This document shows, in pieces, positions 37,008 through 63,558 of a DNA stretch of 64,000 bases. Both the position numbers and the translations under genes were made by a program. The stretch covers positions 620,001 to 684,000 of the forward strand of contig NZ_CP096115.1 in the NCBI RefSeq assembly GCF_024662215.1, read 5' to 3'. This DNA is from Methanoplanus endosymbiosus (GTDB lineage Archaea; Halobacteriota; Methanomicrobia; Methanomicrobiales; Methanomicrobiaceae). The notes below the pieces were generated by a model that worked only from the letters and a program-made list of their open reading frames with translations, was not told the DNA's origin and ran no database searches. Every line of letters starts with the position of its first letter. Position 1 is the first letter of the stretch.

Positions 37008-37158
37008 CTAAAACTGCCCGTAATATCGACACAATTCCGGATATCAATATCATATGACAATCCGGAAAAACCATTATGGGACGTAAAAACCTACAGTTGG
37101 TAAAGGTACAGGAAAATTAAGCAGAGAACCAAATAATTGCAGCCCGGAGGGGGAAGTT

Positions 37159-37689: not shown

Positions 37690-37700
37690 GATTATTCAAA

Positions 37701-45062: not shown

Positions 45063-46808
45063 TCATATGCTTTCAGTATAGGTCCCTGATCCGACAAACC
45101 AGTTCTCATCCACCGGAAGAACATAGCAGAGCTTAAATCTGCTCTCATTGTAATCAGGGTCCGGATACTGCACATAGACAAACCCGCCGCCGTTCTCTGC
45201 TTCAGTAATCTCAAGTTTCAGGACAGGCACACCATAGATATCAGTGAAATTGAGGCGGTTTGTCCCGATTAATTCCGGCTGATAAGGCAGTGCAAGCGTT
45301 GTGCCGTCTGTTTCATATGCAAATATATATGAGCCGCCTTCTGCGAATTTTCCGGAGATATTATTATATTCAGATATTACGGTCTCTTTATCATTATCCT
45401 GTGCATACTGCCTTGCAGACTTTACTCTCAGAACAAGTTTCTCAATATCATCTGCACTGAAATTCACAGGTATGTCCGGGACGTAAATTCCCGATCCGAC
45501 AAACCAGTTCTCATCCACAGGTTCAGCATATGAGAGTTTCAGTTCCTTCCTGTAGTCATGTGACGGGTTTGTATAGACATAATATATATATCCCCCGCCG
45601 TCTTCCGCAAGATCAATCATACCATTGATGAAATCAGCACCGTTTGGATCAACAGATTCAGATCTGTCACTGCCTAAAAGGGCCTTCTGGAAAGGCAGTG
45701 CAATAACAGTCCCGTCCATCTCATAGGCAAAGATATACTTATCACCGTCTGTGAAAGAGCCGTTAATATCGTTGAATTCCGCAAGTGCCTCAACTTTTCC
45801 GGAATTACGGGCAAATTCAGCAGCACTGTGAACATATTCCCTGAGCACTTCATATTCTGCTGAAACACCGGCAGGCAGTGAGGTTACATCATCTGAAATA
45901 ACAGATTTGCCACCATCTTTACTCCACGTTATAACAATTCTCCACTCAGTGCCGTCAATGCCTGCTGTATCCCACAGAGCATATTTCTCAACAGGATTTG
46001 CCCATTCCTTATCCCAGAACGAATATTTTCCTGTGCCATTCCGGTTATCAATAACCCCTCTGACAAACGCCTGAATATCATCACTCTGATATGATTCATC
46101 AGTTAAGAGATTCCGTCCGACCTCTTCAGGAGTAGTGTCATAAATCTCTGTCCCGTCAGTCTGCACAACCCATACATCAAAATCAGTGCTGTCAGTTACA
46201 GGTTTAATATATCTGCCGAGGAAATCCTGTGATTTATAGGTCATATCAACAGAACCGGGATATGATCCGTCTTTATCATAAACCGGATAACCCTGGGATA
46301 ATGCATTAAAGCCCTCTTCCATCCGGAAAAAACTGCTCAGGTACGGTTTTCTGTCGTCCGGTGCCTGAGCCACAATCCCTTTTCTGCCGAGATCCATACC
46401 AACAAGATTTCTGTAATTGTCCGGATATGCGTTCACAACAATCCCATTTTCATCAAATACAAGTGAAGAGATCGAATACGGGTGTTTAACGAGATAATCT
46501 GAGATAACCTTCCCGGTTTCGGGTGAGGACGGCCCAAATGCAGCAACAGCATCTGCACCGGATTTCAGATCGCTTTTTACAGCTTCAAGCCCGGAATTTA
46601 CACCGGATATTATCTCACTGAAGTTCTCCTTCATCGGCCCGTATTGATCCGGCATTTCATCTGGTATTGGTATTTCAGCCGGAATTTCTGTCTGCGGGTC
46701 CGCACCTGTGCTTTCATCTCCGCTGCCAGTGCCGGTGCATCCGGCAGACAACAGTAAAATAAGAAATATTCCGGAGATAAATAACCCCAAAACTTTATTC
46801 ATATCCAA
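45063..46808 (-). CDS. Lipoprotein with three cache-type sensor domains
   Basis: The 581-residue protein has a signal with lipobox (ISGIFLILLLSAGC). A double-cache region follows at about 60-300 (ISSLVFDENGIVVNAYPDNY, FDVWVVQTDGTEIYDT). Two tandem single-cache domains come next, at about 310-455 and 455-581, each with FAYE-DGT-ALP and ending in PVDENWFVGSG. The repetition shows an internal duplication. Cache domains bind small extracellular ligands. Without a kinase or chemoreceptor part, it is a membrane-anchored binding protein, perhaps feeding a separate transducer or transporter. Confidence 0.85.
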   Translation of the reverse strand: MDMNKVLGLFISGIFLILLLSAGCTGTGSGDESTGADPQTEIPAEIPIPDEMPDQYGPMKENFSEIISGVNSGLEAVKSDLKSGADAVAAFGPSSPETGKVISDYLVKHPYSISSLVFDENGIVVNAYPDNYRNLVGMDLGRKGIVAQAPDDRKPYLSSFFRMEEGFNALSQGYPVYDKDGSYPGSVDMTYKSQDFLGRYIKPVTDSTDFDVWVVQTDGTEIYDTTPEEVGRNLLTDESYQSDDIQAFVRGVIDNRNGTGKYSFWDKEWANPVEKYALWDTAGIDGTEWRIVITWSKDGGKSVISDDVTSLPAGVSAEYEVLREYVHSAAEFARNSGKVEALAEFNDINGSFTDGDKYIFAYEMDGTVIALPFQKALLGSDRSESVDPNGADFINGMIDLAEDGGGYIYYVYTNPSHDYRKELKLSYAEPVDENWFVGSGIYVPDIPVNFSADDIEKLVLRVKSARQYAQDNDKETVISEYNNISGKFAEGGSYIFAYETDGTTLALPYQPELIGTNRLNFTDIYGVPVLKLEITEAENGGGFVYVQYPDPDYNESRFKLCYVLPVDENWFVGSGTYTESI

Positions 46809-46939: not shown

Positions 46940-49900
46940 TTAGAGGTATTCCAGTTTGCCTATGTAATACCAGGCAATCTTGGCTGCATCTCCGGTATCG
47001 ACCTCTCCATTATCGTTGAAGTCCGCTTCCGGATATATTACAGTTGCTTTGCCTGCTATCATATATGCAACGTTGGAAACGTCACCAATATCCACATAAC
47101 CATTTCTGTTAAAGTCGCCTCTCTGCCTTATTTTAAACGTACCGTCCATTCCATACATTTTATTATTCAGGAAGGACTGGTCGCTCCATTCAGCACTTAC
47201 GACTTCAAAGAGACAGCTATATCCGGCTTTGAACAGTGAAGCTCTCACATTCAGATCAAAGATTGGTGATTCATCTTCAGAAGTCATGCCATCTTCATTG
47301 GTAACTGAAACAAAAACAATGCCATCAGTGAGATTTGCATAAAAGGATGAACCTGAGAAGACTGTACTGTTAAAGGTTACAGATTCAACGTCTGCAATTT
47401 CCGGATTCCACTTAATTCTGACACCAACTCCTGAAGCATTCACTAAATCCCTGACTGACACAGGAATTGTAACAGTGCCATTATTGTAGATGCAGGCATC
47501 CGGAATTATGATCTCCGGCATATCCTCAAATACTAGCTCAATTTCTGTAATATTGCCGATTGAATCTGTTTCGGTAATATTTTCTCCGGTGAGCTTTAAT
47601 GGCCAGTTCCCGTCTGCCGGATCAATGAGCTGGTTGTTCATCTCATTTGCAATGATATAATTACTGCTTTTGATGGTGAGCCTGCTGTCAATTGTAACAG
47701 AATTTCCATCACTATCGGTAATTACAATATTATACCCTTCTGCTGCAAGCGTTTCGTTGTATGATTTGCCGGTGTGTGGATTGTCGTCATCAACAAATCC
47801 GCATAAAAGCCAGAGCGGCATTCCTGACCACTCATCTCCGCTGTTGTCAGTGAACTCTACCTTGTGTGATTCCTCACCCTGTGCCATTGTACAGCCGAGT
47901 GCTGCCTCAAAGTAACCCTTTGAGATTGTTGCATTAATTGCGCCATCAAGTTCAAGGTTCCATGTGGGGTCCGGCACAGTCTGAATTTCAATTCTGTTCA
48001 GATATTTGGCTGAAAGACCTGCACATGACGGCAGACCTGAGTTGTAATGCCAGTAATTTGCCGGGATTGTCTCAAACATATCATACTGTCCGAAGATGTG
48101 ATCCTCTGTATCAAAGAATACCCTGAATCCATCTTCGTAATAAGGCATTGCACCTTTTTCATTGCCGTCTCCGGTATATCCATACCATGCAAGAACGGGT
48201 GTTCCGAGTGCAGGGACCTCTGACGGATCGTTGTAGATCACATCGTATGACAGTTTGCTTGTCCAGCCGTCTTTTGCTATGAAAGTAATCTCTGTGCCTT
48301 CGTTCATGCCTCCTGCAAGGCTGCATATATCCTTTATTGAAGTTCCCTTCATAGGTTCGGTGATCTTAAATCCTCCGGGATATGTCTCATTCTGATCCCA
48401 GGGGTCTGCCGGAGGGAAACACAGTCCTTCAAATTTGTATAATGTCTCCCCATCACCATGTACGGCAAACTGTTCAATAAGATCTGTGTAGTCAACGGAT
48501 ACATTTGCAACTTCAGTTACGTGATCTGCACCATACTTGACAATTGTTAGTTTTGGAATATCTGTTGGTTCTTCAAAGTCAGTCAGTTTGATCTTTGCAA
48601 GCTGACCTATACTGTAACTTGCTGAAGGAAGACCAGGGCCGACAACCCTTAACGGCCATGAACCATCCGGCGGAAGTTCAAGCGCCTGACCATTGCATTT
48701 GTTTGCAACGATTATTTTAACTGAATAATTATCCTTGCTTTCAAGAATAAGGCTGCTGTCAAGTTCTTTGGAATAGCCGTCAGATGCTGTGATTATAACC
48801 GTATAACCAGCTTCTGCAAGTCCACGGTTAAATCCGGAAGAACCGTGCGGTACCCTGTCATCAACCCATCCGCAGAAGTCATACAGCGGGACACCGCTCC
48901 AGACATTTTCATCAGCGTCTGTCCAGGTGGACTCATGGTGGCATGCAAGGCCCTGTTCAAAATATGTCTGTGTAATAACTGCACCAATCTTTCCTTCACA
49001 GGTAAGATTCCACGATCCGGCAACAGGTGGCTGAGGAATTAGCCCTACAAGATCAATGGTTGCAACCTGTCCGATTGCAGAACCTGAAAATCCGCCCTTC
49101 TCCTCACTCCAGAGTGGTGATCCAACAAGTCTTACAGGATATGCTGAATCATCTCCGGTATCAGGCAGTGGCTCTCCGTTGCATTCATCTGCAAGAATGT
49201 AGCTGTCATTTCTCGCAATGTCCGCACTTGCAAATTCTCTTGAGAAGCCATCTGATGCAATAATTTTAACAGTGTAGCCTTCTGCCGCCGCAGCATCACT
49301 GAATGTCCAGTGGTTTGTGCTTTCAATATTGTCAGATACTGCAACAATTACCCAGAGCGGAACACCAGACCATTCATTTCCGTCAGGATCTGTGTAAGTC
49401 TCTCTGTGGCAGCTGCCCTCTTCAAATTCCGCCTGTGAAATCTTATCGCTGATAACCCCATTTACTGAGATTGACCAGCCTTCAACAGGCTCAGGAAGTC
49501 CGATAAGTTCAACGGACACAATAGCTCCGATTAACTGGCCGGCACCAACGTCATCTCCAACCATCCTTAGAGGATAGCATGGCTTTTCTTTTTCTCCGAT
49601 AGTCTGCGGCAGATCTGTTGAATTCAGAGAGTTTGCCATGATATAACCATCACATTCAGAGATGTCAGCGCTCTCAAAGTTGATTGAATATCCGTCTTCG
49701 GATGTTACTTTTATTGAATATCCCTCTGCTGCAAGTGCTGTATTGAATGTCTCAGGATCATTGTCATCAACAATTCCTACGATCTTATACAGCGGAAGTC
49801 CGCCCCAGAGGCCGTTGTCATCCGTAAATTCAGCTTCGCCATGAGATACAACTTTTGCTTCAAACTGACTTTTTGTAAGAGTAACATTACTCTTTCCGGC

Positions 49901-51877
49901 GAGGCTGAGGTCCCATACAGAAGGTTCTCCGGATGACACTTCAATTGCAACCTTTGCAACTGCTGTCTCTTCTGTTACATCATCTCCACCGTAGAGGAAG
50001 AGGACTTTGTCACCGTCTGAAAGTGGATAGATATTGAATCCTTCTGTTGCATAATTACCCCAGTCATCAAGCACTTTTCCGTTTACAGAGCAGATCCATG
50101 AACTTTCATGTTTGACAAAGAAGTACTCATTGATATCATTGAGAAGAAGAATACCTTTATCATCATAAGACTTGTCTGTGACATTGACTGCCAGACTTTC
50201 TTCACTGGCAACTGTCTGAAGTGCACCAAGAGGCGTTAATTCATTGACATCATAGCTGGTGCCCTCAATGGATTCAACCGAAACTGTGCCTTCACCAAGT
50301 GTGACAGTCCCGTCAAAGAGTGTATCACAACTGCTGCCGGAAGTAACCGTTATTGCAACCTTTGCAACTGCTGTCTCTTCTGTAACATCATCTCCGCCAT
50401 AGAGGAAGAGGAGTTCATCGCCTACAGAGAGCGGACAGGTATTAAGACCTTCAGTTGCAGGATTGCTGTAGTCATCAAGGAGATTGCCATTCAGGTAGCA
50501 GACCCAGGAATCTCCGCCCTTGACATAGAGGTATTCATTAATATCGTTGAGAAGAAGAATGCCCATAGTTTCAAACTTCTTATCAGTGACATTTACTGAG
50601 ATGCTTTCTTCAGATGCAACGGTAAAGAGTGCACCAAGTGGTGTTAATTCATTGACATCATAACTGTTGCCTTCAACGGATTCAATTGCAACCGTGCCTT
50701 CGCCAAGTGCGACACTGCCGTCAAAGATGGTATCGCAGCTGCTGCCGGAAGTAACCGTTATTGCAACCTTTGCAGTTGCTGTTGCCTCTGTAACACCATC
50801 CCCGCCGTAGAGGAAGAGGAGTTCATCGCCTACAGAGAGCGGACAGGTATTAAGACCTTCAGTTGCAGGATTGCTGTAGTCATCAAGGAGATTGCCATTC
50901 AGGTAGCAGACCCAGGAATCTCCGCCCTTGACATAGAGGTATTCATTAATATCGTTGAGAAGAAGAATGCCCATAGTTTCAAACTTCTTATCAGTGACAT
51001 TTACTGAGATGCTTTCTTCAGATGCAACGGTAAAGAGTGCACCAAGTGGTGTTAATTCATTGACATCATAACTGTTGCCTTCAACGGATTCAATTGCAAC
51101 CGTGCCTTCGCCAAGTGCGACACTGCCGTCAAAGATAACATCTGTAGTGGGTGCCGGTTCGTCTGTCAGAATTTTAATTGTGTTGATATTTTTAACACCA
51201 AGTCCTGTTGTTGCAGGTTTGCCGTCAAAATAGTGCCAGTACTTCTCATCAAGTGTGGCATTCATATCCTGATTGCCGAATATGTGTTCGCCCCACTCAT
51301 TGACAGATGTATCAGCAAAGAATATATTTTTCATACCATCAGTGTAACCATCACCAGAGTAGCTTCCGTTCTTCCACCAGGCAAGAACTATCTTTCCCTG
51401 CCGGCTTTCCGGACTGTAAACATTATCATACCCTACCTTCTTGGAATAACCGTCAGATGCAACAAATACTATCTCATCTCCTTCGGATGCACCGCCTACA
51501 AGATCACAGAGGTCCTTTGTGTCGGTCCCTTTTACGTTTCCCATATCCTTTATCGGATAAGAGTTTACATCCTCACGGGGATTCCACATATTATATGGTT
51601 CACCGGGATGGACACCAGTCCATCCGTCTTCACCGTCTTCAAAGACAGGCCCCTGCATATAATAATGTGTTGTTCCGTCTCCCTGAACGTCGAGGTTATT
51701 CTCCATATAATCCACATCAACAGTCATCTCTTTGATAACTGATGTTCCGTCTGCGGCAATTTTTTTCACTGTCACCTGATCAGTGCCAGCCGCAGATGCC
51801 GGATTTACTGAAAAGATAAATAAAAGCAGAAGAACTGCAAATATCACACTTTTCCATTCTGGTCTCAAATTAGTCAT
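46940..51877 (-). CDS. Giant secreted modular protein: SUOX-like, DUF4430-like, cohesin and dockerin domains
   Basis: The 1645-residue exported protein begins with a signal peptide (VIFAVLLLLFIFSVNPASAA). Modules in order are as follows. About 32-245 is a SUOX-like (molybdopterin-oxidoreductase-fold) domain with KDLCDLVGG. About 246-650 holds three DUF4430-like repeats (YDVNELTPLGAL). About 655-1165 holds three shorter SUOX-like repeats. About 1170-1345 is a second large SUOX-like domain (IKDICSLAGG), and about 1350-1490 another short one. About 1495-1590 is a cohesin-like domain (GVGVRIKWNPEIADVESVTF). About 1592-1645 is a dockerin (DFNRNGYVDIGDVSNVAYMI and DFNDNGEVDTGDAAKIAWYY). It is probably part of a cell-surface complex. 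Confidence 0.85.
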   Translation of the reverse strand: MTNLRPEWKSVIFAVLLLLFIFSVNPASAAGTDQVTVKKIAADGTSVIKEMTVDVDYMENNLDVQGDGTTHYYMQGPVFEDGEDGWTGVHPGEPYNMWNPREDVNSYPIKDMGNVKGTDTKDLCDLVGGASEGDEIVFVASDGYSKKVGYDNVYSPESRQGKIVLAWWKNGSYSGDGYTDGMKNIFFADTSVNEWGEHIFGNQDMNATLDEKYWHYFDGKPATTGLGVKNINTIKILTDEPAPTTDVIFDGSVALGEGTVAIESVEGNSYDVNELTPLGALFTVASEESISVNVTDKKFETMGILLLNDINEYLYVKGGDSWVCYLNGNLLDDYSNPATEGLNTCPLSVGDELLFLYGGDGVTEATATAKVAITVTSGSSCDTIFDGSVALGEGTVAIESVEGNSYDVNELTPLGALFTVASEESISVNVTDKKFETMGILLLNDINEYLYVKGGDSWVCYLNGNLLDDYSNPATEGLNTCPLSVGDELLFLYGGDDVTEETAVAKVAITVTSGSSCDTLFDGTVTLGEGTVSVESIEGTSYDVNELTPLGALQTVASEESLAVNVTDKSYDDKGILLLNDINEYFFVKHESSWICSVNGKVLDDWGNYATEGFNIYPLSDGDKVLFLYGGDDVTEETAVAKVAIEVSSGEPSVWDLSLAGKSNVTLTKSQFEAKVVSHGEAEFTDDNGLWGGLPLYKIVGIVDDNDPETFNTALAAEGYSIKVTSEDGYSINFESADISECDGYIMANSLNSTDLPQTIGEKEKPCYPLRMVGDDVGAGQLIGAIVSVELIGLPEPVEGWSISVNGVISDKISQAEFEEGSCHRETYTDPDGNEWSGVPLWVIVAVSDNIESTNHWTFSDAAAAEGYTVKIIASDGFSREFASADIARNDSYILADECNGEPLPDTGDDSAYPVRLVGSPLWSEEKGGFSGSAIGQVATIDLVGLIPQPPVAGSWNLTCEGKIGAVITQTYFEQGLACHHESTWTDADENVWSGVPLYDFCGWVDDRVPHGSSGFNRGLAEAGYTVIITASDGYSKELDSSLILESKDNYSVKIIVANKCNGQALELPPDGSWPLRVVGPGLPSASYSIGQLAKIKLTDFEEPTDIPKLTIVKYGADHVTEVANVSVDYTDLIEQFAVHGDGETLYKFEGLCFPPADPWDQNETYPGGFKITEPMKGTSIKDICSLAGGMNEGTEITFIAKDGWTSKLSYDVIYNDPSEVPALGTPVLAWYGYTGDGNEKGAMPYYEDGFRVFFDTEDHIFGQYDMFETIPANYWHYNSGLPSCAGLSAKYLNRIEIQTVPDPTWNLELDGAINATISKGYFEAALGCTMAQGEESHKVEFTDNSGDEWSGMPLWLLCGFVDDDNPHTGKSYNETLAAEGYNIVITDSDGNSVTIDSRLTIKSSNYIIANEMNNQLIDPADGNWPLKLTGENITETDSIGNITEIELVFEDMPEIIIPDACIYNNGTVTIPVSVRDLVNASGVGVRIKWNPEIADVESVTFNSTVFSGSSFYANLTDGIVFVSVTNEDGMTSEDESPIFDLNVRASLFKAGYSCLFEVVSAEWSDQSFLNNKMYGMDGTFKIRQRGDFNRNGYVDIGDVSNVAYMIAGKATVIYPEADFNDNGEVDTGDAAKIAWYYIGKLEYL
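50402..51148 (-). repeat. Two near-identical 408-bp internal repeats in the giant surface protein gene
   Basis: Sequence from 50402 recurs at 50810 (offset 408 bp, 136 codons) and is nearly identical for about 340 bp. The two copies encode the first two DUF4430-like modules; the third copy (about 49920-50330) is diverged. This indicates recent tandem duplication or gene conversion. Confidence 0.9.
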
Positions 51878-52383
51878 AAATACTCCAGATTAACGAAATC
51901 AAATTAACTCAACATACCAATTCATTTCAATTAGATAACAGTGGTAATTTTAAAAATATTCTATAAAGAGTATTTGGAATAAAAAACAGAAAAAATATGA
52001 CATAAATAAGAATTTAAAGCAACATATGTCATTTATTTCAGAAAAAACATGCAAAAATACGCCAATCAATACAGTAAAATTAATTAAATTAACCCGATTA
52101 AAATCAAAAACATAGCCAAAATAAATGAATAAATTATCAAATACACCGCAGGAATAGTTAAAAAACAAAATAACCACAATTAATCAATTAAATTAAAGTA
52201 CAGTAAATTCCGGAGCGCATACTTATGCAAGAACATTTAACCATCAAGTAAAAGATGCCGCAGAGACAAGTAAACCGAGTTTAATTGATTAAATTGATTT
52301 TATTTACAAAATATATAACAGCACATTTATTAATTTTAAATCCAAAATTATTCAAATCCGAAAACCTCCGGAGAGTCTGAAAT
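51878..52383. promoter_or_regulatory. AT-rich divergent control region of two surface-protein genes
   Basis: This 506-bp stretch holds no gene. It contains repeated TTAATTnATTAA-like words: TAATTAAATTAA at 52081-52092, TTAATCAATTAAATTAAAG from 52180, and TTTAATTGATTAAATTGATT at 52280-52299. The second and third are in inverted orientation to each other. A TATA candidate AAATATATAA lies at about 52308-52317 for the rightward gene. The words look like operator sites for a shared regulator. Confidence 0.45.
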
Positions 52384-55300
52384 TTGAGTTATAAATCATT
52401 CACCCTGATCACAATAATATCATTAATTGTAATAAGTTCAGCCTCAGCAACAACAAATCTTGAGATAATAAAATACGCTGAAGACGGCAGCACAGTACTG
52501 GGCAAAGATTCGGCAGACTACAGTTGGATGGAGCAGAACCTTCCGGTAAAAGGTGACGGCAGAACACACTATTACCTCCAGGGACCTGTATTTGAGGCAA
52601 AATGGAGCGAAGTTCATCCCGATCTCCCATACGATATGTGGAATCCGCAGGAGGACATCAACTATGAAGGAAAAGATCTCGGTGCAGTAAAAGGGACATC
52701 ACTGCGTGACATCTGCAACCTTGCCGGAGGAATGAACGAAGGAGACATTGTCAGAGTGCAGGCACAGGATGGATTTTATAAGAATTTTCCCTATGAAAAT
52801 GTCTATTCACCAACGTCAGCACAGGGCGAGATAATAGTTGCATGGTACTCAGTCTTTGATGACGGACGCGGGGGTTATGTTCCGGCAGATTACAGCAGTG
52901 GCATGCGACTTGCATTTCTTGCCGATACATCAGTAAACCCGACAGGTGATCACGTATTCGGAGTAACGGATATGAAGGATTCCCTGCCGGACGAATACTG
53001 TCACTATTTCAACGGCCAGTATCCGGCAACCACCGGACTTTCAGTACAGGGAATATCTAAAATAATCATCTACAGTGATGATGAAGCACCGCCCGGAAAG
53101 ATAACAGTCACAAGTGAACCAAAAGGGGCAGAGGTTTATCTCAATGATGAATATATGGGAAAAACGGACATTACCATAGAAGACCTTGATGACGGTGATT
53201 ATGAAGTAACTGTAAAACTTGACGGGTATAAGACACCGGATCCAAAGAGTGCATCCGTTACACTGGCATCCGAAACAGTTCTTGAATTTGTACTGGAAGA
53301 GAACTTCTCCGGATACAGTGGGGACGAACTTAAGAGATTTAAAAAATCGGAAGTAAAAGGAAATCTTAACATCTGTTATTCTGAGAACCAGCCATATATT
53401 CTCAGTCAGGGAAAGACAAAAGAGATAACGCTCAATACCGGAATTTCAGACTACGAAAATGTCACATATTCAAGGCTGTGGGTCTATGCCGGAGATTCAC
53501 ATAACAGAAATGACAATTCCGGAGCAAAACCTGAAATCTCACTGACTGCCGGTGGCAAAAAGCTGATGGCAGAGGCAGAATATTATGACCGGAAGGATGA
53601 CGGTGACCGGGAATATTCTGCAACTTTTGCATATACTCCTGATTTAAGCGGGATTAAAAATCCGGAGATAAAAATTGAGATCTCCAATGCAGGCACAGCG
53701 AATGAAGAGTTTACATTATACGGCATTGCACTATTAACTGAAGATAAATCAGGGAATGATACGACATTCTGGGAGGGATATGAGGGATGTGACATCATCT
53801 GGCCCGGATATGAAACAGGCGATGGTTCATATTATTCATATGCAGACACAGACAGCCCGGACAGCCGGATTTCAGAGGCGAAAGCCACCTGCATTGCAAC
53901 CGGAATGAAAAACCCGTCCCCTGAAGATGTCTCGTTTGAATTTAACGGAGAAGAATGGTCTGAAATATTTACCGATGAGGACTACGGGCTTTTAAACCGG
54001 ACTTTTGATGTATTTCTCTTTCTTGACGGGAGATCGGCTACAACCGGAATAAAAAGCAGCACCTCCTCGTCTGAAAAAGGGTATATTGAAGCCAGAAATC
54101 TGATATTTTCCGGAATAATAAATGAAGATATTTCTTCAACTTCAGAGCCTGATACAAATCTGACCACGACAGATAAAACAGAGCCGGAAGATGACACAGA
54201 AATTTTCAGTAAAGCCAATAAATCCGCTGATTTAACAGGAGATAACTATTCAAAGACCAATTCATCACAGCCCATATATCCGGATTACTGTGACAGATGT
54301 ACCGGCTACAGAGAAGAGAAGAAAAGTCTTCTTGATGAAGTAATAGATCTCTTCTTCAGGTTATTTTCCGGAAGTGAACCTGACAATCCGGAATATGACT
54401 GTGATCTCTGCGTGGGTTTTAATGAAAGCCGGATCTATCAGGTAAATTCAACGCATATCCCGGAGAATGATACTGAAACTTATAATGAGAATATTTATGA
54501 AAATAAGATAATATCTGTTGAATCAGAGCCACAGGGCGCTCTCATTTACATTAATGGTACATATACCGGAAAAATAACGCCATACAGATATGAATCAGAT
54601 AACATCTACAGCAAAACCCTCACATTAGAAAAAGAAGGGTTCAGAGCATATAATCTCCTGGTAAGTAGAGAAGATGAAACCATCAGGCCAGTACTTACAC
54701 CTTCAGACAGTCACATATCTGAAAAATCACTGCATTCGGTGAAAAACGGAAACGAAACTGTTTCAGAGACCGGAAGTTTATATGTGAAAGGTTCTTCAGA
54801 AGACCTGATGGTATTCATAGACAACCGTAATACTTTCAAAAAAACCCCTGAAATAATCAGCGGGATAAAAACAGGAGTGCATACCATATACCTGAAATCA
54901 TACGATGATTTCAGCGGCAGTTCAGACAGTTACGGAAGCAGAAAAATATATGTCTATGAAAACTGTATAACGCCGGTATTTATTCCTGACAGTGAAAAAT
55001 ACTCAGGGAAAGTTTCTTTTGTATCAGATGATTACAATGGTAAACCTGCAAGCGTAAACGGAATTTATCAGAGATACAGCATACCTTTTACATCAGACGA
55101 GATCTATTACGACAGAACATATCTCTGCATAGATGATGAAAATAAATATATTTCGTACTACATTCCGGCAGATTCCTATGTAGAAGGAAAATTTGTGATA
55201 CCAGAATATGAAGGGAATTATTACAATGTTTTTTTTGACTCTGAACCACAGGGTGCAGACATATTTATAGACGGATTTGATACCGGATATCACACACCTT

Positions 55301-55656
55301 TTCAGATAGAGAATATCTCAGCCGGACATCATAAAGCTGTAATCTCAAAGCCGGGATATATTCCGGAAGAGAAGGAGTTTATGGTTCATGCCGGAGAAGA
55401 AGACCCATCTGCCGGAAGTTACCACTTCAGCATTGAGGAATATCCGTCAGGTTCAGTATTTGCAGACACTATCCCTTCCGGAGCAAAGGTTTACCTTAAT
55501 GATGTAAACACAGGTGCAGTAACACCAGTGACCATTCCATATCTGAATATAGGAACTTACAAAATAAGGTTTATAAATGGTTCAGTACGATCAGGGCTTC
55601 TGGATATTACTGTTCTTCCGTTTGAAAAGACAGAAATTATTGAGGATATGCAATGA
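52384..55656 (+). CDS. Secreted SUOX-like/DUF3344-like/PEGA protein
   Basis: TTG 52384 is the likely start (GGAGAG 8-13 nt upstream). The signal peptide is SFTLITIISLIVISSASA. Residues 25-235 form a large SUOX-like domain with LRDICNLAGG and YDMWNPQEDIN. Four PEGA-type domains are visible at about 238-310 (TVTSEPKGAEVYLNDEYMG), 710-770 (SVESEPQGALIYINGTYTG), 950-1000 (FFDSEPQGADIFIDGFDTG) and 1020-1090. Between them, residues 315-580 resemble the DUF3344 beta domain of methanogen surface proteins. Two CDRC/CDLC motifs (about 640 and 680) may bind metal. No anchor is visible. It overlaps the next gene by 4 nt. Confidence 0.82.
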   Translation: MSYKSFTLITIISLIVISSASATTNLEIIKYAEDGSTVLGKDSADYSWMEQNLPVKGDGRTHYYLQGPVFEAKWSEVHPDLPYDMWNPQEDINYEGKDLGAVKGTSLRDICNLAGGMNEGDIVRVQAQDGFYKNFPYENVYSPTSAQGEIIVAWYSVFDDGRGGYVPADYSSGMRLAFLADTSVNPTGDHVFGVTDMKDSLPDEYCHYFNGQYPATTGLSVQGISKIIIYSDDEAPPGKITVTSEPKGAEVYLNDEYMGKTDITIEDLDDGDYEVTVKLDGYKTPDPKSASVTLASETVLEFVLEENFSGYSGDELKRFKKSEVKGNLNICYSENQPYILSQGKTKEITLNTGISDYENVTYSRLWVYAGDSHNRNDNSGAKPEISLTAGGKKLMAEAEYYDRKDDGDREYSATFAYTPDLSGIKNPEIKIEISNAGTANEEFTLYGIALLTEDKSGNDTTFWEGYEGCDIIWPGYETGDGSYYSYADTDSPDSRISEAKATCIATGMKNPSPEDVSFEFNGEEWSEIFTDEDYGLLNRTFDVFLFLDGRSATTGIKSSTSSSEKGYIEARNLIFSGIINEDISSTSEPDTNLTTTDKTEPEDDTEIFSKANKSADLTGDNYSKTNSSQPIYPDYCDRCTGYREEKKSLLDEVIDLFFRLFSGSEPDNPEYDCDLCVGFNESRIYQVNSTHIPENDTETYNENIYENKIISVESEPQGALIYINGTYTGKITPYRYESDNIYSKTLTLEKEGFRAYNLLVSREDETIRPVLTPSDSHISEKSLHSVKNGNETVSETGSLYVKGSSEDLMVFIDNRNTFKKTPEIISGIKTGVHTIYLKSYDDFSGSSDSYGSRKIYVYENCITPVFIPDSEKYSGKVSFVSDDYNGKPASVNGIYQRYSIPFTSDEIYYDRTYLCIDDENKYISYYIPADSYVEGKFVIPEYEGNYYNVFFDSEPQGADIFIDGFDTGYHTPFQIENISAGHHKAVISKPGYIPEEKEFMVHAGEEDPSAGSYHFSIEEYPSGSVFADTIPSGAKVYLNDVNTGAVTPVTIPYLNIGTYKIRFINGSVRSGLLDITVLPFEKTEIIEDMQ

Positions 55657-57014
55657 TAAATCTCCGGTATTTCTGCATGAAAACAGCAGAAATTCTTATT
55701 CTGACATCTGCACTATTTCTTATAATATCGCCGTCCTGTGCACTGACAACCCACGAAGAGATACAGTGCGGAAACTATTTTTCAGGCGTTTTTATGACAG
55801 AAAAAGCAGAGGGAGTTATATCTGTCAGATGGGTCACTGAAGGTTATGATGATAATTTCAGTATAAGGTATCATTTCAGCAGAACAGAACCGGATGAAGA
55901 TCAGACCTGCGGGCAGACTGACGAACAGACAGAAGAGCAAACAGACGGATATATTTTAAACAGCAGTATTAACAGGCAGAATATTTCCGGTCTGATGCTT
56001 TATTCAGCCGGAATTTTAACATATCCCGGATGCCGGGTTTCCGGGAGACTGCTGAGAGGAGAAGATCAGATACAGCCGTTCTCATTTAAAATTCCGGACA
56101 AAAATTCCGGGTTTGAATTTATAGTGCTCTCTGATCTGCATTCATCTCCGGATGATAACGTAACCGCCGGAACAAAAGCTCCGGTAAACTCAGTTATTAA
56201 CTGTATCAGTTCATGTGAAGACCCTTCCTTTGCTGTAATATCCGGAGACCTCGTTGACGATGGATATATCCCGTTACAGTGGCAGGAATTTTTTATCCGG
56301 ACATCTGCCCTGCTCAATACAACTGTGCTTTATACAACTCCCGGAAACCATGAGAAGAACAGCACATATTATTACGATCTCTTCGGCTATCCACAGTTTT
56401 ATCAGGAAGAAATCGGAGGCAGCCGGTTTGTATTTCTTGACAGCAATGACAATGCAGCGGTACAGTTCCCGGCTCAGAAAGAACTTATAGATGATAATAC
56501 CCATAATTCCGGTTCAGATGAAAGTACAGGTCTGAATTTCATCTTCTTCCATCATCCGCCGTACAGCAGTGACGGGAGGCATCCCGGCGGGTGGACAAAT
56601 ATCCGCAAAGCCTGGGGCGATTCGTTTGAAAATACCCCGGACACTGTAGTATTTTCGGGCCATGTCCATGCCTATGAGAGGTTTGAAATCAAAAATGCGA
56701 CCTACATCACCTGCGGTACCGGAGGCGGGGAGCTGTATAATCTCGGCATATATCCGGATGATGAAGACAGTCCTGAAATGTCGGTTGAGAAGAGATATGG
56801 ATATATGAAGGTAAAAGTTCCTCCGGGTGGCAGTTCTGCTGATATATCCTTCATCTCACCTGTAATATCAGGCGACAGCTCAACTGCTACAGGAGATTTA
56901 AAATATTCACCAGAAATTATTGATTATTCTGTAGCAGGCAACCATTATCCCAACAGCCGGTTTATGGAGAACATTATGAAAATTTCAGAAAAACTCCCAT
57001 TTAAAGGGATTTAA
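55653..57014 (+). CDS. Exported calcineurin-like metallophosphoesterase
   Basis: The 453-residue protein has a signal peptide (ILILTSALFLIISPSCA) and an Ig-like N-terminal part resembling that of purple acid phosphatases. The metallophosphoesterase core follows: VLSDLHS, ISGDLVDDG, TPGNHEKN, FFHHPPYS and FSGHVHAYERFE. All metal ligands (Asp, His, Asn, two His) are present. It would hydrolyse phosphate esters outside the cell. The start overlaps the upstream stop (ATGATA... with GAGGATAT before it), showing tight coupling to the PEGA protein gene. Confidence 0.9.
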   Translation: MINLRYFCMKTAEILILTSALFLIISPSCALTTHEEIQCGNYFSGVFMTEKAEGVISVRWVTEGYDDNFSIRYHFSRTEPDEDQTCGQTDEQTEEQTDGYILNSSINRQNISGLMLYSAGILTYPGCRVSGRLLRGEDQIQPFSFKIPDKNSGFEFIVLSDLHSSPDDNVTAGTKAPVNSVINCISSCEDPSFAVISGDLVDDGYIPLQWQEFFIRTSALLNTTVLYTTPGNHEKNSTYYYDLFGYPQFYQEEIGGSRFVFLDSNDNAAVQFPAQKELIDDNTHNSGSDESTGLNFIFFHHPPYSSDGRHPGGWTNIRKAWGDSFENTPDTVVFSGHVHAYERFEIKNATYITCGTGGGELYNLGIYPDDEDSPEMSVEKRYGYMKVKVPPGGSSADISFISPVISGDSSTATGDLKYSPEIIDYSVAGNHYPNSRFMENIMKISEKLPFKGI

Positions 57015-57037
57015 TCCACAGTATGAGGTTTAAAGAT

Positions 57038-57904
57038 ATGAAAATTAAGATGATCAATTATGAGAAGTACCGTCAGAATTCCGGCAGGAAATTCAGCAGT
57101 TTTCACCCCGGAATAATAGCGGTACTCTTTCTGATGGCTGTATTTATTATCCAGCCGGGATTTTGTGCAACAGAAGAGCTTACAATCTCCAGATTTGGTG
57201 CAGATGGCAGTCTCATTGACGAGAAGACCTATACCTACCAGTGGCTTGAAGAGAATCTGCCGGTTTACGGGGACGGTGTTACTCACTATTACATGCAGGG
57301 GCCGACCTTTGATGAAGCTGACGAGTGGAATCCCGCAGAGGATGTAAATGTTCTCAGCCGCGATATGGGCGCTGTAAAAGGCACTGACATCAAAGACATC
57401 TGTGATACTGTCGGGGGTATGACTCCGGGCGGGACAATTAAGATTTTATCAGATGACGGTTTCTCAAAAAAGCTGGATTATGATAATATATACAATCCAA
57501 AACCACGTCAGGGGCCGGTATGTGTCTGCTGGTACAATGGTGAGGAGTCATCTCCGGAAGCAAAGGCACAGGGTTCAGGTTACCCGCCGGAATTCTACTC
57601 AGGCATGAGGATTGTATTCTTTGCAGATGATTCAGTAAATCCCTGGGGTTATCATGTCTTTGGCAATGAAGATATGAGAGAGACCGTCAGTGAGGAGAAT
57701 ATGCACTATTTCAATGGTGAATGGCCCTCTTCAGGTGGTCTTTCAGTAAAATACGTTGAAAAACTTGAGATGTACGAACCGGAAATTCCGGCAGGGGATG
57801 AGACAAAAGAAGGGAGCACAGCAGACGACAATACAAAAACTCCCCTCTCAGTATTCTGTATAATTGCAGCGGTCTTTGCATGCTTTGCAGTACGGAGGAT
57901 TTAA
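57038..57904 (+). CDS. Membrane-anchored SUOX-like protein A
   Basis: ATG 57038 is chosen because GAGGT precedes it exactly as GGAGG precedes the next gene, and the ATG at 57023 overlaps that site. The protein of about 288 residues has a signal/anchor (GIIAVLFLMAVFIIQPGFCA) and one large SUOX-like domain (KTYTYQWLEENLPVYGDGVT, IKDICDTVGGMTPGG, VNPWGYHVFGNEDM, GLSVKYVEKLEM). It ends in a C-terminal membrane helix (LSVFCIIAAVFACFAVRRI). The conserved Cys of KDIC is kept. No molybdenum-ligand Cys of sulfite oxidase can be assigned by eye. Confidence 0.8.
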   Translation: MKIKMINYEKYRQNSGRKFSSFHPGIIAVLFLMAVFIIQPGFCATEELTISRFGADGSLIDEKTYTYQWLEENLPVYGDGVTHYYMQGPTFDEADEWNPAEDVNVLSRDMGAVKGTDIKDICDTVGGMTPGGTIKILSDDGFSKKLDYDNIYNPKPRQGPVCVCWYNGEESSPEAKAQGSGYPPEFYSGMRIVFFADDSVNPWGYHVFGNEDMRETVSEENMHYFNGEWPSSGGLSVKYVEKLEMYEPEIPAGDETKEGSTADDNTKTPLSVFCIIAAVFACFAVRRI

Positions 57905-57908
57905 AGAT

Positions 57909-58796
57909 ATGAATGGGAAATTTGAGCAGAATAAATTATTAAGAATTATTGTTGGACTGTTAGCGGCAGGAATGCTTCTTTCCGGACTGGTAATGACGGC
58001 ATCAGCTGAACCAACTACTGAGGTTACAGTATATGTCATAGATGAAAACGGCAGTTCAGTCTCAGAAAAGACTGTTGATTATGAATGGATGGAGGAGAAC
58101 CTGCCGGTTTACGGGGACGGTGTGACGCATTACTTCCATCAGGGCCCTGTATTTTCGGATGACAGGGAGATACGCTGGGATTTAAACGAGACCGCCAATT
58201 TTAAGGATCGCGGTGCAGTCAGGGGAACAGCAGTACGGGATCTCTGCGACATGGCCGGAGGTATGCAGTCCGGAGATGATCTTATGATCAGTGCTTCAGA
58301 CGGATACAATGTTGTCTTTGATTATGAAAATGTTTATGAGGCAACTGAAAGACAGGGAGAGATCGTCCTCTGCTGGTATAATGGTGAAGAGGCTGCCAAA
58401 GGAGAGAGGCAGGGCACAGGATATCCTCCTGACTACTATAACGGCATGAGATTAATTTTCTTTGCTGACAATTCCACCAATGAAGAAGGGCTTCATGTAT
58501 TCGGAAATACCGACATGAGGGTTAGTTTTCCCGAAGAGAGGATACATCTCTTTGACAATCTGTACCCATCGACCGGCGGATACAATGTGAAATGGGTTGA
58601 CAGTATTACAGTATTTAAGGGCGGATATGAAGGCGGATACGAAGTGCCTTCAAAGTCTCTTGCAGCAGAAAAATCTATGAATACTTCAGCTGAAGTTCCG
58701 GCTGAAAAATCAGGGTCAGGATTTATTCTTCTCTCAGTTCTTATCTCACTTGGAGTTGCAGCATTTGCGGCTATGTCCGGTAAGGAGAGGAAGTGA
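57909..58796 (+). CDS. Membrane-anchored SUOX-like protein B
   Basis: This is a paralogue of the preceding protein: signal (LLRIIVGLLAAGMLLSGLVM), domain (VDYEWMEENLPVYGDGVTHY, VRDLCDMAGGMQSGD, FADNSTNEEGLHVFGNTDM, GGYNVKWVDSITVF), Ser/Glu-rich linker and C-terminal helix (FILLSVLISLGVAAFAAM) with a basic tail. ATG 57909 has GGAGG nine bases upstream. The stretch upstream to 57864 lies within the previous gene and is not needed. The two proteins are tandem duplicates. Confidence 0.82.
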   Translation: MNGKFEQNKLLRIIVGLLAAGMLLSGLVMTASAEPTTEVTVYVIDENGSSVSEKTVDYEWMEENLPVYGDGVTHYFHQGPVFSDDREIRWDLNETANFKDRGAVRGTAVRDLCDMAGGMQSGDDLMISASDGYNVVFDYENVYEATERQGEIVLCWYNGEEAAKGERQGTGYPPDYYNGMRLIFFADNSTNEEGLHVFGNTDMRVSFPEERIHLFDNLYPSTGGYNVKWVDSITVFKGGYEGGYEVPSKSLAAEKSMNTSAEVPAEKSGSGFILLSVLISLGVAAFAAMSGKERK

Positions 58797-59432
58797 TTGG
58801 CCAAAATGATTTATATCAGAAATATTCTGAGAGGATTTCTGCCCGTTTTTCTGGTTGTTCTTCTTCTGGCGTTTTCTGCCGGATGCACAGGCAGTGCTGA
58901 ATCAGCACCGGGCGATAATGGCAATCAGAAAGTGGCTGCTGAAGAACCTTCAGGCAATATAACGCTTGTATATAAAGACGGGACAGAAAAAATACTGAAT
59001 TATGATGACCTGAGCAGTCTGCCACAGCAGACAGGCTGGGGATATTCAGTATCAACAGTGGGGATAAAATACGGCCCTTACAGATGCACAGGCCCACTCC
59101 TGTCCGATATTGCCGGACTTTCAGGCGGAATGAAAGAGGATGATCTGATGTGGGTGTCAGCAGATGACGGATATATGTGGGTGTTTGATTATGAACAGGT
59201 GAACGGAGACGGGTATATCACACTGGATGAAAACCTCCGGGAGAGAGAATCACCTGAGCTTAAAGTGATACTTATGCACACAATTGACGGCCATCCGCTC
59301 GAATACAATGACGGTGCGCCATACAGGGTTGCGATAATATCTGACAGTGATGAGGTAATCACAGAAGGGAGCTGCTGGGTGAAGTGGGTCTCAGAGATCG
59401 AGATTAAGGGAGGTCCGGATGAAGAGAGCTGA
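58797..59432 (+). CDS. Short SUOX-like lipoprotein
   Basis: The 211-residue protein has a lipoprotein signal (FLPVFLVVLLLAFSAGC) and a compact molybdopterin-oxidoreductase-like domain (NYDDLSSLPQQTGWGY, GPYRCTGPLLSDIAGLSGGM, MWVSADDGYMWVFDYEQV, SCWVKWVSEIEI). It is the minimal version of the fold expanded in its upstream neighbours; the Cys of the DIC motif is Ala here (SDIAGL), but YRCTG gives another Cys. AGAGG lies six bases before TTG 58797; ATG 58806 is the alternative. It overlaps the next gene by 14 nt. Confidence 0.8.
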   Translation: MAKMIYIRNILRGFLPVFLVVLLLAFSAGCTGSAESAPGDNGNQKVAAEEPSGNITLVYKDGTEKILNYDDLSSLPQQTGWGYSVSTVGIKYGPYRCTGPLLSDIAGLSGGMKEDDLMWVSADDGYMWVFDYEQVNGDGYITLDENLRERESPELKVILMHTIDGHPLEYNDGAPYRVAIISDSDEVITEGSCWVKWVSEIEIKGGPDEES

Positions 59433-60435
59433 TAATTTACACATATTATTTTTTGCTCTTTTCTTCACCGGAATTCTGATCTTATCTTCCGGATGCACAT
59501 CTGATTCTGCCGGTTCTGAGGAGAAGACAGTTTTGAAAATTCTTCCTGCCGGAAGCCTGATGCTGCCTTTTGAATATCTGGAAGAGGACTATGAAGCAGA
59601 AAATCCCGGCATTGACGTTCAGTATGAGGGGCATGGCAGTATCCAGTGTATAAGACAGGTAACTGATCTGGGCCGGAATTTTGACCTTGTTGTTGTTGCC
59701 GACAGCAGTCTTATTCCTGATATGATGATGAGGGAAAACCCGGAGACGGGGAATAATTACTCAGATAGCTATACCGAATTTGCCACAAATGAGATTGTGA
59801 TCGCCTATACAGATGAGAGCCTTTATTCTGATGAGATAAATGCAGACAACTGGTATGAGATCTTACAGAGATCTGATGTTACTGTCGGCTTTTCAAATCC
59901 CATGCTTGATGCAGCAGGATACAGGGCATTCATGCTCTTTCAGCTTGCCGGGCAGTATTACGGCGATGAAAATCTAATGTCTGAGATTGCAGGCGATCAT
60001 ATGAAGGGGGGCATCACTGTTGAAAAATCCGGGGATGTGGAGAGGATAATGCTCCCGGAATTAGTGCAGCCCTCTGATGAAAAACTTAAGATCAGGGACG
60101 GCAGTATTTTTCTGTTATATCTGCTTGAAAGCGGTGGCGTTGATTATGCCATTGAGTACAGAAGTGTTGCAGAGGGACATAATCTGAATTATATCGGACT
60201 GCCCGAAGAGATTAATCTTGGTAATTCTTCAATGAACAGTGTCTATGATGATGTATCAGTAAATCTTGGCTTTGAGCGCTTCTCATCCATAGGAAGTGAG
60301 AGAACCGGAAGATCTACTGTTTACGCATGGACAATTCCGGATAATGCAGACAACCCGGATGAGGCAGTGAGATTTGCGGAATACATGGAGGATGAGTTCA
60401 GGAATAACAGATACGGATGGCCTCCGGCATTGTAA
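59419..60435 (+). CDS. WtpA-like tungstate/molybdate-binding lipoprotein
   Basis: The 338-residue ABC-transporter substrate-binding protein has a lipoprotein signal (LFFTGILILSSGC). The WtpA/ModA family core follows: LPAGSLMLPFEYLEEDYEAE, GHGSIQCIRQVTDLGR, LVVVADSSLIPDMM, VGFSNPMLDAAGYRAF and VDYAIEYRSVA. Such proteins bind tungstate or molybdate for MoaB-dependent cofactors. The expected permease and ATPase genes do not follow, so it is orphaned from its transporter here. It is translationally coupled to the SUOX-like lipoprotein, with GGGAGGT three bases before its start. Confidence 0.88.
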   Translation: MKRADNLHILFFALFFTGILILSSGCTSDSAGSEEKTVLKILPAGSLMLPFEYLEEDYEAENPGIDVQYEGHGSIQCIRQVTDLGRNFDLVVVADSSLIPDMMMRENPETGNNYSDSYTEFATNEIVIAYTDESLYSDEINADNWYEILQRSDVTVGFSNPMLDAAGYRAFMLFQLAGQYYGDENLMSEIAGDHMKGGITVEKSGDVERIMLPELVQPSDEKLKIRDGSIFLLYLLESGGVDYAIEYRSVAEGHNLNYIGLPEEINLGNSSMNSVYDDVSVNLGFERFSSIGSERTGRSTVYAWTIPDNADNPDEAVRFAEYMEDEFRNNRYGWPPAL

Positions 60436-63256: not shown

Positions 63257-63558
63257 TCTTCCGGCAGTTTTGTCTCTTTCAGCATCCGGTCAGAGTCACT
63301 CTCATACAGCCTGTCCTGAACTATTCGGAATTTCCTAATAGTTGCCTCATATTTCAGTTCCCCGCTCCCGTAGATATTTTTCAGGTGTTCATTTATTGTC
63401 GGAGTTGTCACATCAAAGAGTACAGCCATCATCTTCTGGCTGAGCCATATCGTTTCATCCTCATACCTGACCTCAATCGACTCTTCGCCACTCTCTGAAG
63501 TGAAAATCAGAAATTCGGCTGTGCTGTTTCTGATCAGTTTTCTGTCAGTATTGCTCAT
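63253..63558 (-). pseudogene. RhuM-family N-terminal fragment
   Basis: From Met 63558 (MSNTDRKLIRNSTAEF) the product of about 101 residues matches the RhuM N-terminus: EFLIFTSESGEESIEVRYED, IWLSQKMMAVLFDVTTPTI, NEHLKNIYGSGEL. RhuM proteins are normally about 330 residues, and this stops after LKETKLPEE. It is part of a truncated array linked to BREX or restriction-type loci. The start overlaps the end of the BrxB fragment by 14 nt. Confidence 0.75.

What the first reader, a model, noticed from the sequence alone, without database searches (positions are those of the whole stretch)
46940..60435. Surface cluster of SUOX-like domain proteins with a tungstate/molybdate-binding protein
Five large copies of one domain (YDMWNP-type insert, then DLC or DIC plus GG, then HVFGN-DM and GLSVK) occur in four secreted or membrane-anchored proteins. 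A short version sits in a lipoprotein translationally coupled to a WtpA-like protein. Every large copy keeps the Cys in D-[LI]-C-x-x-x-G-G. The fold resembles the molybdopterin-oxidoreductase domain but with unknown cofactor. This could be an extracellular oxyanion- or cofactor-binding system unique to these methanogens.
Basis: partly seen in the sequence, partly recalled or inferred. Interest (0 to 1): 0.68.

Follow-up and report, generated by a model that had tools for sequence, protein, structure and literature searches.

The report
Sulfite-oxidase-like surface proteins with tungstate-binding protein
Many methane-cycling archaea carry a gene cluster that pairs cell-surface proteins, built like sulfite oxidase but without its conserved metal-holding cysteine, with their own tungstate-binding protein, which looks like an undescribed way of catching tungsten, or its pterin cofactor, outside the cell.

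Summary
Five large copies of one domain sit in four exported proteins, and a short version sits in a lipoprotein whose gene overlaps a WtpA gene. The models match the sulfite-oxidase (SUOX) fold, and the pterin-binding protein PruR is among the best hits for both forms. The short form keeps residues that appear to correspond to PruR's pterin-site residues. The molybdenum-ligating cysteine is not conserved; the D-[LI]-C cysteine is a different residue (80 of 87).

The wtpA linkage is real and tight. In 392 genomes of the phylum, 43 encode the lipoprotein, 42 this WtpA type and 41 both, adjacent in 41 of 41. All 43 also encode the large domain. The cluster's WtpA forms its own clade (84 of 84, support 0.999). 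WtpB/WtpC, TupA-like proteins, a molybdenum-storage-protein homologue or MobB lie near some clusters. ANME archaea and a Pelotomaculum also have large-domain clusters.

Best reading: a surface capture system for tungsten or molybdenum, in which Moco-less SUOX/PruR-like domains bind a pterin-type ligand or metal–pterin and serve a dedicated WtpA. The ligand is inferred; nothing shows cofactor binding. I found no printed account.

The parts
46940..51877 (-). 1645-aa exported multidomain protein: large SUOX-like domain, three DUF4430-like repeats, three small SUOX-like domains, second large domain, fourth small domain, C-terminal dockerin-like region
   Evidence: PF00174 E 4.6e-13 (49.5 bits, cut-off 24, two stretches); DUF4430 and Dockerin_1 below their cut-offs (19.2 and 18.1 bits)
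51155..51781 (-). large SUOX-like domain, copy 1
49493..49915 (-). small SUOX-like domain s1
49037..49480 (-). small SUOX-like domain s2
48572..49015 (-). small SUOX-like domain s3 (best PF00174 stretch of this protein)
47972..48556 (-). large SUOX-like domain, copy 2
47522..47965 (-). small SUOX-like domain s4
46976..47119 (-). dockerin-like C-terminus (aa 1587-1634)
   Evidence: 18.1 bits, below the cut-off of 22.9; DNA around it recurs in sister genome G217
52384..55656 (+). 1090-aa exported protein, large SUOX-like domain (52453-53079) followed by PEGA domains
   Evidence: (PEGA E 3e-44)
55653..57014 (+). exported calcineurin-like metallophosphoesterase
   Evidence: PF00149 E 9.2e-15; a similar gene in 73 of 109 loci
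57023..57904 (+). 293-aa protein, signal peptide, large SUOX-like domain (57173-57784), C-terminal membrane segment (signal and membrane segment by eye)
   Evidence: structure model of this domain, pLDDT 96.6
57864..58796 (+). 310-aa protein, large SUOX-like domain (58017-58625), C-terminal membrane segment (by eye)
58797..59432 (+). 211-aa lipoprotein with the short SUOX/PruR-like domain (58956-59414)
   Evidence: profile matches sulfite oxidase 1ogp E 1.9e-6; model pLDDT 92.5; PF00174 22.4 bits, just below the cut-off of 24
59419..60435 (+). dedicated WtpA-type tungstate/molybdate-binding lipoprotein, own clade

Best explanation
This is a conserved surface system for acquiring tungsten (or molybdenum). 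SHOWN by computation: exported proteins carry arrays of SUOX/PruR-fold domains without a conserved metal-ligating Cys. A short domain of this kind forms a lipoprotein that is almost always encoded next to a WtpA paralogue forming its own clade. Many clusters contain an exported phosphoesterase, and some have WtpB/WtpC, a TupA-like protein, a molybdenum-storage-protein homologue or MobB near by. INFERRED mechanism: the domains on the cell surface capture a pterin-type ligand, most likely W- or Mo-pterin or its breakdown product released by neighbouring cells. The phosphoesterase may trim the ligand. The short lipoprotein docks on its partner WtpA, which receives the metal (as oxyanion or still complexed) and feeds a Wtp permease. 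In this genome a second WtpA with permease and ATPase is encoded elsewhere.
For: Linkage: 41 of 42 genomes with this WtpA type also have the lipoprotein, 41 of 43 the other way, 41 of 41 adjacent, P 5e-52 by hypergeometric on 392 genomes, relatedness ignored. All 43 lipoprotein genomes have the large domain. Lipoprotein and WtpA ORFs overlap in 61 of 73 pairs, taking the first possible start of each ORF. WtpA clade of 84, support 0.999, no intruders. W/Mo neighbours: WtpB and WtpC downstream in 25 of 94; TupA-type protein in 12 of 109 loci (NF041772 hit for the two tested plus one fusion, 180 to 184 bits, below its cut-off of 400); MoSto-homologue family in 10 of 109 loci, 8 distinct contigs, 1.8 to 10 kb from the lipoprotein in the nine that have one (one member E 2.1e-58 to MoSto beta); MobB in two loci. 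Fold: PruR and SUOX on top for both domains. Short domain: Asp80, Gly81, Tyr82, Arg133, Trp150 and Trp153 in 40 of 40, against PruR Asn/Asp102, Tyr104 and Trp160 reported as pterin-site residues. Large domain: the best conserved charged residues are acidic (Asp39 86, Glu61 85, Asp80 83, Asp100 86, Asp172 86 of 87), with Tyr44, Trp57 and Trp125.
Against: No ligand is shown. PruR's pocket is reported as probably too small for Moco, so whole-cofactor capture may be wrong. The mapping to PruR residues rests on end-to-end ranges and motif order, not coordinates, and is off by about one residue at the Trp. In the large domain the PruR Trp position is Tyr 32, Trp 21 or another residue in the rest of 87. 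Basic residues are not absent from the large domain: Arg151 is Arg in 74 of 87 and Lys/Arg fills four further positions in 74 to 81 of 87, so the acidic/aromatic pattern argues only weakly against an oxyanion. WtpB/WtpC are not found after WtpA in 67 of 94 (some contigs end there), including this window. The large domain occurs without the lipoprotein in 5 of 48 genomes; five long loci (18 kb or more) show large domains but neither lipoprotein nor WtpA, and one (L062) has a lipoprotein without WtpA. A PocR/PAS/HisKA sensor protein lies beside WtpA in 6 of 109 loci, which fits signalling too. The phosphoesterase had no PDB sequence match. No Rfam riboswitch in the window.
Confidence: 0.4

Rival explanations
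1. Same acquisition system, but the SUOX-like domains bind the oxyanion itself (tungstate, molybdate or thiotungstate) and no pterin; they concentrate it at the surface for WtpA.
For: Partner is a WtpA keeping Ser46, Ser74, Asp164 and Arg169 shared with canonical WtpA; TupA-like and MoSto-homologue neighbours; short domain has Arg133 and Lys152 in 40 and 39 of 40; large domain Arg151 in 74 of 87, opposite Arg133 in the profile alignment.
Against: The strongest conserved charged positions of the large domain are acidic; the ligands reported for this fold that I saw are pterins.
Confidence: 0.23
2. PruR-like signalling: the lipoprotein is an extracellular pterin or redox sensor that switches the WtpA transporter, a regulator, or surface adhesion, rather than capturing a nutrient.
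For: PruR does this with DcpA, encoded in the adjacent gene, in Proteobacteria; one lipoprotein per genome in 41 of 43; a PocR/PAS/HisKA sensor-type protein (one of 7 ORFs tested) lies 1.1 to 1.9 kb from the lipoprotein, next to WtpA, in 6 of 109 loci.
Against: No such sensor in the window cluster or in most loci; many tandem surface copies do not look like a sensor.
Confidence: 0.15
3. The domains are mainly structural or adhesive modules of a surface matrix; the WtpA link reflects shared location or co-regulation only.
For: Repeated domains next to PEGA, DUF4430-like, dockerin-like and (in Pelotomaculum) SLH and PKD modules.
Against: A lipoprotein-WtpA pair, adjacent in 41 of 41 genomes, with a dedicated WtpA clade; conserved potential pocket residues.
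Confidence: 0.12
4. They are true Mo/W-pterin oxidoreductases of the SUOX family with another metal ligand.
For: SUOX fold; Pfam PF00174 in the multidomain proteins.
Against: No Cys in the ligand-bearing strand and turn in 32 of 40 short and 82 of 87 large domains; PruR, also without it, binds small pterins and probably not Moco; I recognised no redox partner among the neighbour families looked at, most of which were not annotated.
Confidence: 0.06

Closest known systems
PruR periplasmic pterin-binding protein (PDB 7kom, 7kp2, 7kos, 7rkb)
   Same: SUOX fold, exported, no conserved metal-ligating Cys, Asp-Gly-Tyr and C-terminal Trp at the approximate places of its pterin-site residues; encoded next to its partner gene
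   Different: Partner is a tungstate-type substrate-binding protein, not DcpA or DTB; many tandem and larger forms on the surface; sequence identity low (10 to 20%); pterin binding untested
Sulfite oxidase / PF00174 Oxidored_molyb
   Same: Fold; short-form profile matches 1ogp at E 1.9e-6; the multidomain protein hits PF00174
   Different: Molybdenum-ligating Cys not conserved; no evidence for Moco; tandem surface-protein architecture
WtpABC tungstate/molybdate transporter
   Same: WtpA is a full TIGR03730 match; WtpB and WtpC downstream in 25 of 94 clusters
   Different: Separate WtpA clade; Val93 in 84 of 84 where the 11 canonical rows have Ser or Thr, Gln76 in 84 of 84, Gly228 in 80 of 84 for Lys; paired with the SUOX-like lipoprotein in 41 of 42 genomes

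Membership tests
Sulfite oxidase family (Moco enzymes) | SUOX fold | tested here: met
   Models pLDDT 96.6 and 92.5; Z 12.1 (146 residues, 4.2 A) and 15.1 (137 residues, 2.7 A) to 3hbg
Sulfite oxidase family (Moco enzymes) | Conserved Cys that ligates Mo | tested here: not met
   No Cys in the relevant strand and turn in 32 of 40 short and 82 of 87 large domains; position placed by alignment to the own-genome PF00174 protein that has it, ambiguous by three residues
Sulfite oxidase family (Moco enzymes) | Bound Mo/W pterin cofactor and redox activity | not testable with these tools
   Needs protein
PruR pterin-binding proteins | SUOX fold without the Mo ligand, in an exported protein | tested here: met
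   signal sequence or lipobox seen by eye
PruR pterin-binding proteins | Asn/Asp102, Tyr104 and Trp160 of the pterin site | tested here: inconclusive
   Short form Asp80, Tyr82, Trp153 40 of 40; large form Asp100 86 of 87, aromatic at 102 in 71 of 87, Trp at 199 in 21 of 87; correspondence approximate
PruR pterin-binding proteins | Adjacent dcpA or DTB regulator | tested here: not met
   Downstream neighbour is wtpA in 41 of 41 genomes; a PocR/PAS/HisKA protein follows wtpA in 6 of 109 loci, not compared with DTB
PruR pterin-binding proteins | Measured pterin binding | not testable with these tools
   Needs protein
WtpA tungstate-binding proteins | TIGR03730 above cut-off | tested here: met
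   326.4 bits, cut-off 242.75; three more cluster members tested are also above it
WtpA tungstate-binding proteins | Metal-ligating Asp and Glu (AF_0094 D153 and E218, recalled) | tested here: inconclusive
   Asp kept in 83 of 83; the Glu position is Ser in 83 of 83, but also in the genome's own second WtpA

The most novel reading that the evidence does not exclude
A pterin-cofactor salvage system: extracellular SUOX/PruR-like domain arrays bind tungsto- or molybdopterin (or a fragment) shed by other cells, the exported phosphoesterase trims it, and the lipoprotein-WtpA pair imports the metal or the intact complex. To my knowledge this would be the first route for taking up W/Mo in cofactor form, spread over methanogens, ANME archaea and perhaps some bacteria.
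Probability: 0.25. Interest if true: 0.88.

Novelty: new variant of a known kind. Interest (0 to 1): 0.64.

Why it matters
Methanogens and ANME archaea depend on W/Mo-pterin enzymes for their first (or last) C1 step (established knowledge, not tested here), and W and Mo can be scarce in sulfidic water (recalled). A dedicated surface apparatus for these metals, or for pterin cofactors in the environment, would be new physiology. It would also extend the PruR idea (a SUOX fold without the Mo ligand as a pterin receptor) from bacterial signalling to archaeal nutrient capture. The lipoprotein-WtpA pair gives a small, expressible target for a direct test.

Tried and rejected
Conserved D-[LI]-C cysteine as the SUOX metal ligand: rejected, it is in the helix after the relevant strand pair. 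Loss of the WtpA Glu ligand as a cluster-specific change: rejected, the genome's second WtpA has Ser there too. 'No conserved basic residue in the large domain': I first thought so, but one search shows Arg151 in 74 of 87 and Lys/Arg at four more positions, so the argument for pterin over oxyanion was weakened and the best reading lowered from 0.42 to 0.40. 'No sensor among the neighbours': also not borne out, a PocR/PAS/HisKA protein occurs in 6 loci, so the signalling rival was raised from 0.13 to 0.15. Riboswitch in the window: none at Rfam gathering thresholds. Empty-site comparison with same-genus genome G217, which lacks the cluster: only scattered DNA matches, no clear site. Large-domain profile against PDB sequences: nothing credible (best E 0.97). 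Phosphoesterase against PDB sequences: no match. Pfam found nothing for neighbour families 6, 7 and 20 (one member each).

Literature: the searches listed no paper that by title or abstract start describes this cluster; two of them returned no paper. Beyond listings I saw passages and one section of PMC13259868 and passages of PMC5517513. The library is open-access only.

The first FastTree reading seemed to put non-cluster rows inside the clade because one cluster member with a variant motif was used as root; rerooted on TupA-type rows. The ORF picker chose antisense shadows in several loci, so linkage was recounted with tblastn and with whole-genome searches. The 109 loci are 69 from the search for related loci (best 80 of 180 matches kept) and 40 stretches from 38 genomes; they partly overlap, so locus counts are not independent, and genome counts on 392 genomes carry the main claim. 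The cut between this WtpA type and other WtpA was drawn by me at E 1.2e-82; the next hit (G302, 261 bits) was left out. WtpA rows of 250 aa or shorter were dropped from the alignment. For the structure alignments I gave 82 large domains kept from 187 candidates plus 5 window copies, and 39 of 48 lipoproteins plus the window's. In both VIA lists 9a64_A (YLAL-SDHA model) ranks between the SUOX/PruR rows and the rest (Z 8.1 and 9.0); I did not place it.
Full report
WHAT IS THERE. The interval holds six plus-strand genes and one long minus-strand gene: a 1645-aa exported protein (minus strand), a 1090-aa PEGA protein, an exported calcineurin-like phosphoesterase, two roughly 300-aa membrane-anchored proteins, a 211-aa lipoprotein and a WtpA. 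Five large domains lie in four of these proteins. E-values against one query run from 2.2e-69 to 6.9e-27, so this is true homology. The same genome has one more large copy, in a 571-aa small-large-small protein. It also has a second WtpA (41% identical) between an ABC ATPase and a permease, and one ordinary PF00174 protein (114.6 bits) that still has the cysteine.

FOLD. A profile of 40 lipoprotein domains matches sulfite oxidase 1ogp at E 1.9e-6 and the own-genome PF00174 protein at hhalign 96.1%. The large-domain profile (87 rows) matches the lipoprotein profile at 97.5%, E 5.9e-12 over 97 columns. A profile of 232 small domains from 75 ORFs matches the lipoprotein profile at 97.2%, E 2.9e-11. 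AlphaFold2 models are confident (pLDDT 96.6 and 92.5). By Foldseek the first three large-domain hits are PruR pterin-binding proteins (best E 2.6e-4; two hits at E 0.001 or better), followed by 1xdy, an oxidoreductase entry with a W-containing cofactor. The short domain hits PruR 7kom first (E 1.9e-6), then SUOX-family enzymes, 41 hits at E 0.001 or better. VIA-align gives Z 12.9 (7kom, 132 residues, 3.0 A) and 12.1 (3hbg, 146 residues, 4.2 A) for the large domain, and 15.1 (7kp2, 135 residues, 2.9 A) and 15.1 (3hbg, 137 residues, 2.7 A) for the short one. PruR and SUOX are therefore tied. Below the SUOX/PruR rows and one unplaced entry (9a64_A, Z 8.1 and 9.0), other rows start at Z 5.8 and 4.5.

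ACTIVE SITE. A 2026 review (PMC13259868; passages, one section) describes PruR as an exported SUOX-fold protein without the Mo-ligating Cys. It prefers tetrahydromonapterin in vitro, with Asn102 (Asp in some groups), Tyr104 and Trp160 noted at its site. Its pocket is reported as probably too small for Moco. In the short archaeal domain Asp80-Gly81-Tyr82, Arg133, Trp150 and Trp153 are present in 40 of 40 rows. The VIA ranges put Trp153 within about one residue of PruR Trp160; this is approximate, since no coordinates were available. The stretch that would carry the Mo ligand has Thr43 in 40 of 40, and 32 of 40 have no Cys there; in the large domain 82 of 87 have none. hhalign instead places the own-genome Cys opposite Ile46, so the exact column is uncertain by three residues. 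The Cys in D-[LI]-C (80 of 87) lies in the following helix; its role is unknown. In the small domains another Cys is conserved in 188 of 232, role also unknown. The best conserved charged residues of the large domain are acidic, with several aromatics, but Arg151 (74 of 87, opposite Arg133 of the short form) and Lys/Arg at four more positions (74 to 81 of 87) mean that an anion cannot be ruled out on this ground.

LINKAGE. In 392 genomes of the phylum, drawn evenly and of mixed completeness, the large domain is found in 48, the lipoprotein in 43, and a WtpA as close as the cluster type in 42 (cut drawn by me). All 43 lipoprotein genomes have the large domain. Lipoprotein and cluster WtpA share 41 genomes, and in 41 of 41 the WtpA lies directly downstream on the same strand. 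The exceptions can be read: G204's WtpA match starts at base 65 of a contig, G068's WtpA is split into two ORFs (L149), and G103's lipoprotein match is partial. Five genomes have the large domain only. In 109 partly redundant loci the lipoprotein is found in 94, with WtpA adjacent in 93 (exception L062). Counts for other genes anywhere in the locus are phosphoesterase 73, WtpC 47, WtpB 41 and TupA-type 12. Sixteen loci show no WtpA; nine of these are shorter than 12 kb, and five of 18 kb or more have neither lipoprotein nor WtpA (two of the five, L134 and L137, come from genomes whose pair lies elsewhere). Lipoprotein and WtpA ORFs overlap in 61 of 73 pairs, many by 4 bases, with the first possible start taken for each. 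Cluster WtpAs form one clade, 84 of 84, support 0.999, apart from 11 other WtpAs and 13 TupA-type rows; duplicates between the two locus sets are included. They keep Ser46, Ser74, Asp164 and Arg169 but have Val93 (84 of 84) where the other rows have Ser or Thr, Gln76 (84 of 84), and Gly228 (80 of 84) for Lys.

OTHER NEIGHBOURS. A family present in 10 of 109 loci (8 distinct contigs) is homologous to the molybdenum storage protein (one member tested, E 2.1e-58 against 1.2e-11 for uridylate kinase); where a lipoprotein is present it lies 1.8 to 10 kb away, so it is near rather than in the cluster. MobB lies beside the cluster in a Methanophagales contig (L130) and in the Pelotomaculum contig (L068). 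The latter also has ECF transporter genes and a member of the MoSto-type family, and its SUOX-like protein ends in SLH domains. TupA-type proteins hit NF041772 with 180 to 184 bits, below its cut-off of 400. One locus tested (L031) carries a 649-aa TupA-WtpA fusion upstream of the cluster; three more loci have an ORF of the same length and motifs. In 6 of 109 loci a protein next to WtpA resembles a sensor kinase; the one member tested has PocR, PAS and weak HisKA matches. Most neighbour families were not annotated.

INTERPRETATION. Shown: a conserved surface cluster of SUOX-fold domains without the Mo-ligating Cys, almost always encoded with a dedicated WtpA and in some genomes near W/Mo genes. 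Inferred, about two in three: it serves W/Mo acquisition. Inferred, about two in five: the SUOX-fold domains bind a pterin-type ligand, as PruR does. Against whole-cofactor capture stands the small PruR pocket. For a pterin over a bare oxyanion stand the ligands reported for this fold and, weakly, the acidic/aromatic conservation of the large domain. Oxyanion binding, signalling, scaffold and enzyme readings are given as rivals.

NOVELTY. The parts are known kinds (SUOX/PruR fold, WtpA, surface modules), but the lipoprotein-WtpA pair and the surface arrays tied to it were not found in print (searches; open-access library only). The PruR review mentions archaeal SUOX-like proteins in its similarity network but, in what I read, no link to tungstate transport.

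Noticed in passing
L007 4728-6443 (G000:C1:816727-818442): 571-aa small-large-small SUOX-like protein with a C-terminal membrane segment, about 136 kb from the cluster, with no wtpA beside it.
   Followed up: partly
window 46940-51877, aa 249, 385 and 521: Three DUF4430-like repeats, the first two nearly identical, probably a recent duplication; DUF4430 is below its cut-off here (19.2 bits) but just above it in relative L116 (24.2, cut-off 23.8).
   Followed up: partly
window about 46957-47231: DNA of the dockerin-like C-terminus matches nine places in the same-genus genome G217, which lacks the cluster, so it looks like a common surface-attachment module.
   Followed up: no
L031 6842-8791 (same length and motifs in L037, L120, L142): 649-aa fusion of a TupA-like and a WtpA-like protein (L031 tested), directly upstream of SUOX-like genes.
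   Followed up: partly
L128 1888-3072 and 17-1192 (also L014, L016, L121, L124, L151): PocR/PAS/HisKA sensor-type protein next to the cluster WtpA in six loci; its signal and link to the cluster are unknown.
   Followed up: partly
L068 3483-19879: Pelotomaculum cluster: phosphoesterase, SUOX-like protein with SLH domains, ECF transporter ATPases and T component without an obvious S component, MobB, MoSto-family AA_kinase, and a protein with BspA-type leucine-rich repeats.
   Followed up: partly
L069 521-18392: Dehalococcoidia MAG contig with several SUOX-like surface proteins and two phosphoesterase-like matches but no WtpA or lipoprotein.
   Followed up: no
window 36249-39676: ORFs that look like GvpF/L gas-vesicle proteins and an Hsp20-like protein (recalled resemblance, no search made).
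   Followed up: no
window 45063-46808: Cache-domain lipoprotein next to the 1645-aa gene; no relative at E 1e-5 in the 109 loci.
   Followed up: partly
window 62149-63663: Short ORFs resembling pieces of RhuM-like and DUF1016-like proteins with a TEQV repeat, possibly gene remnants (recalled resemblance).
   Followed up: no
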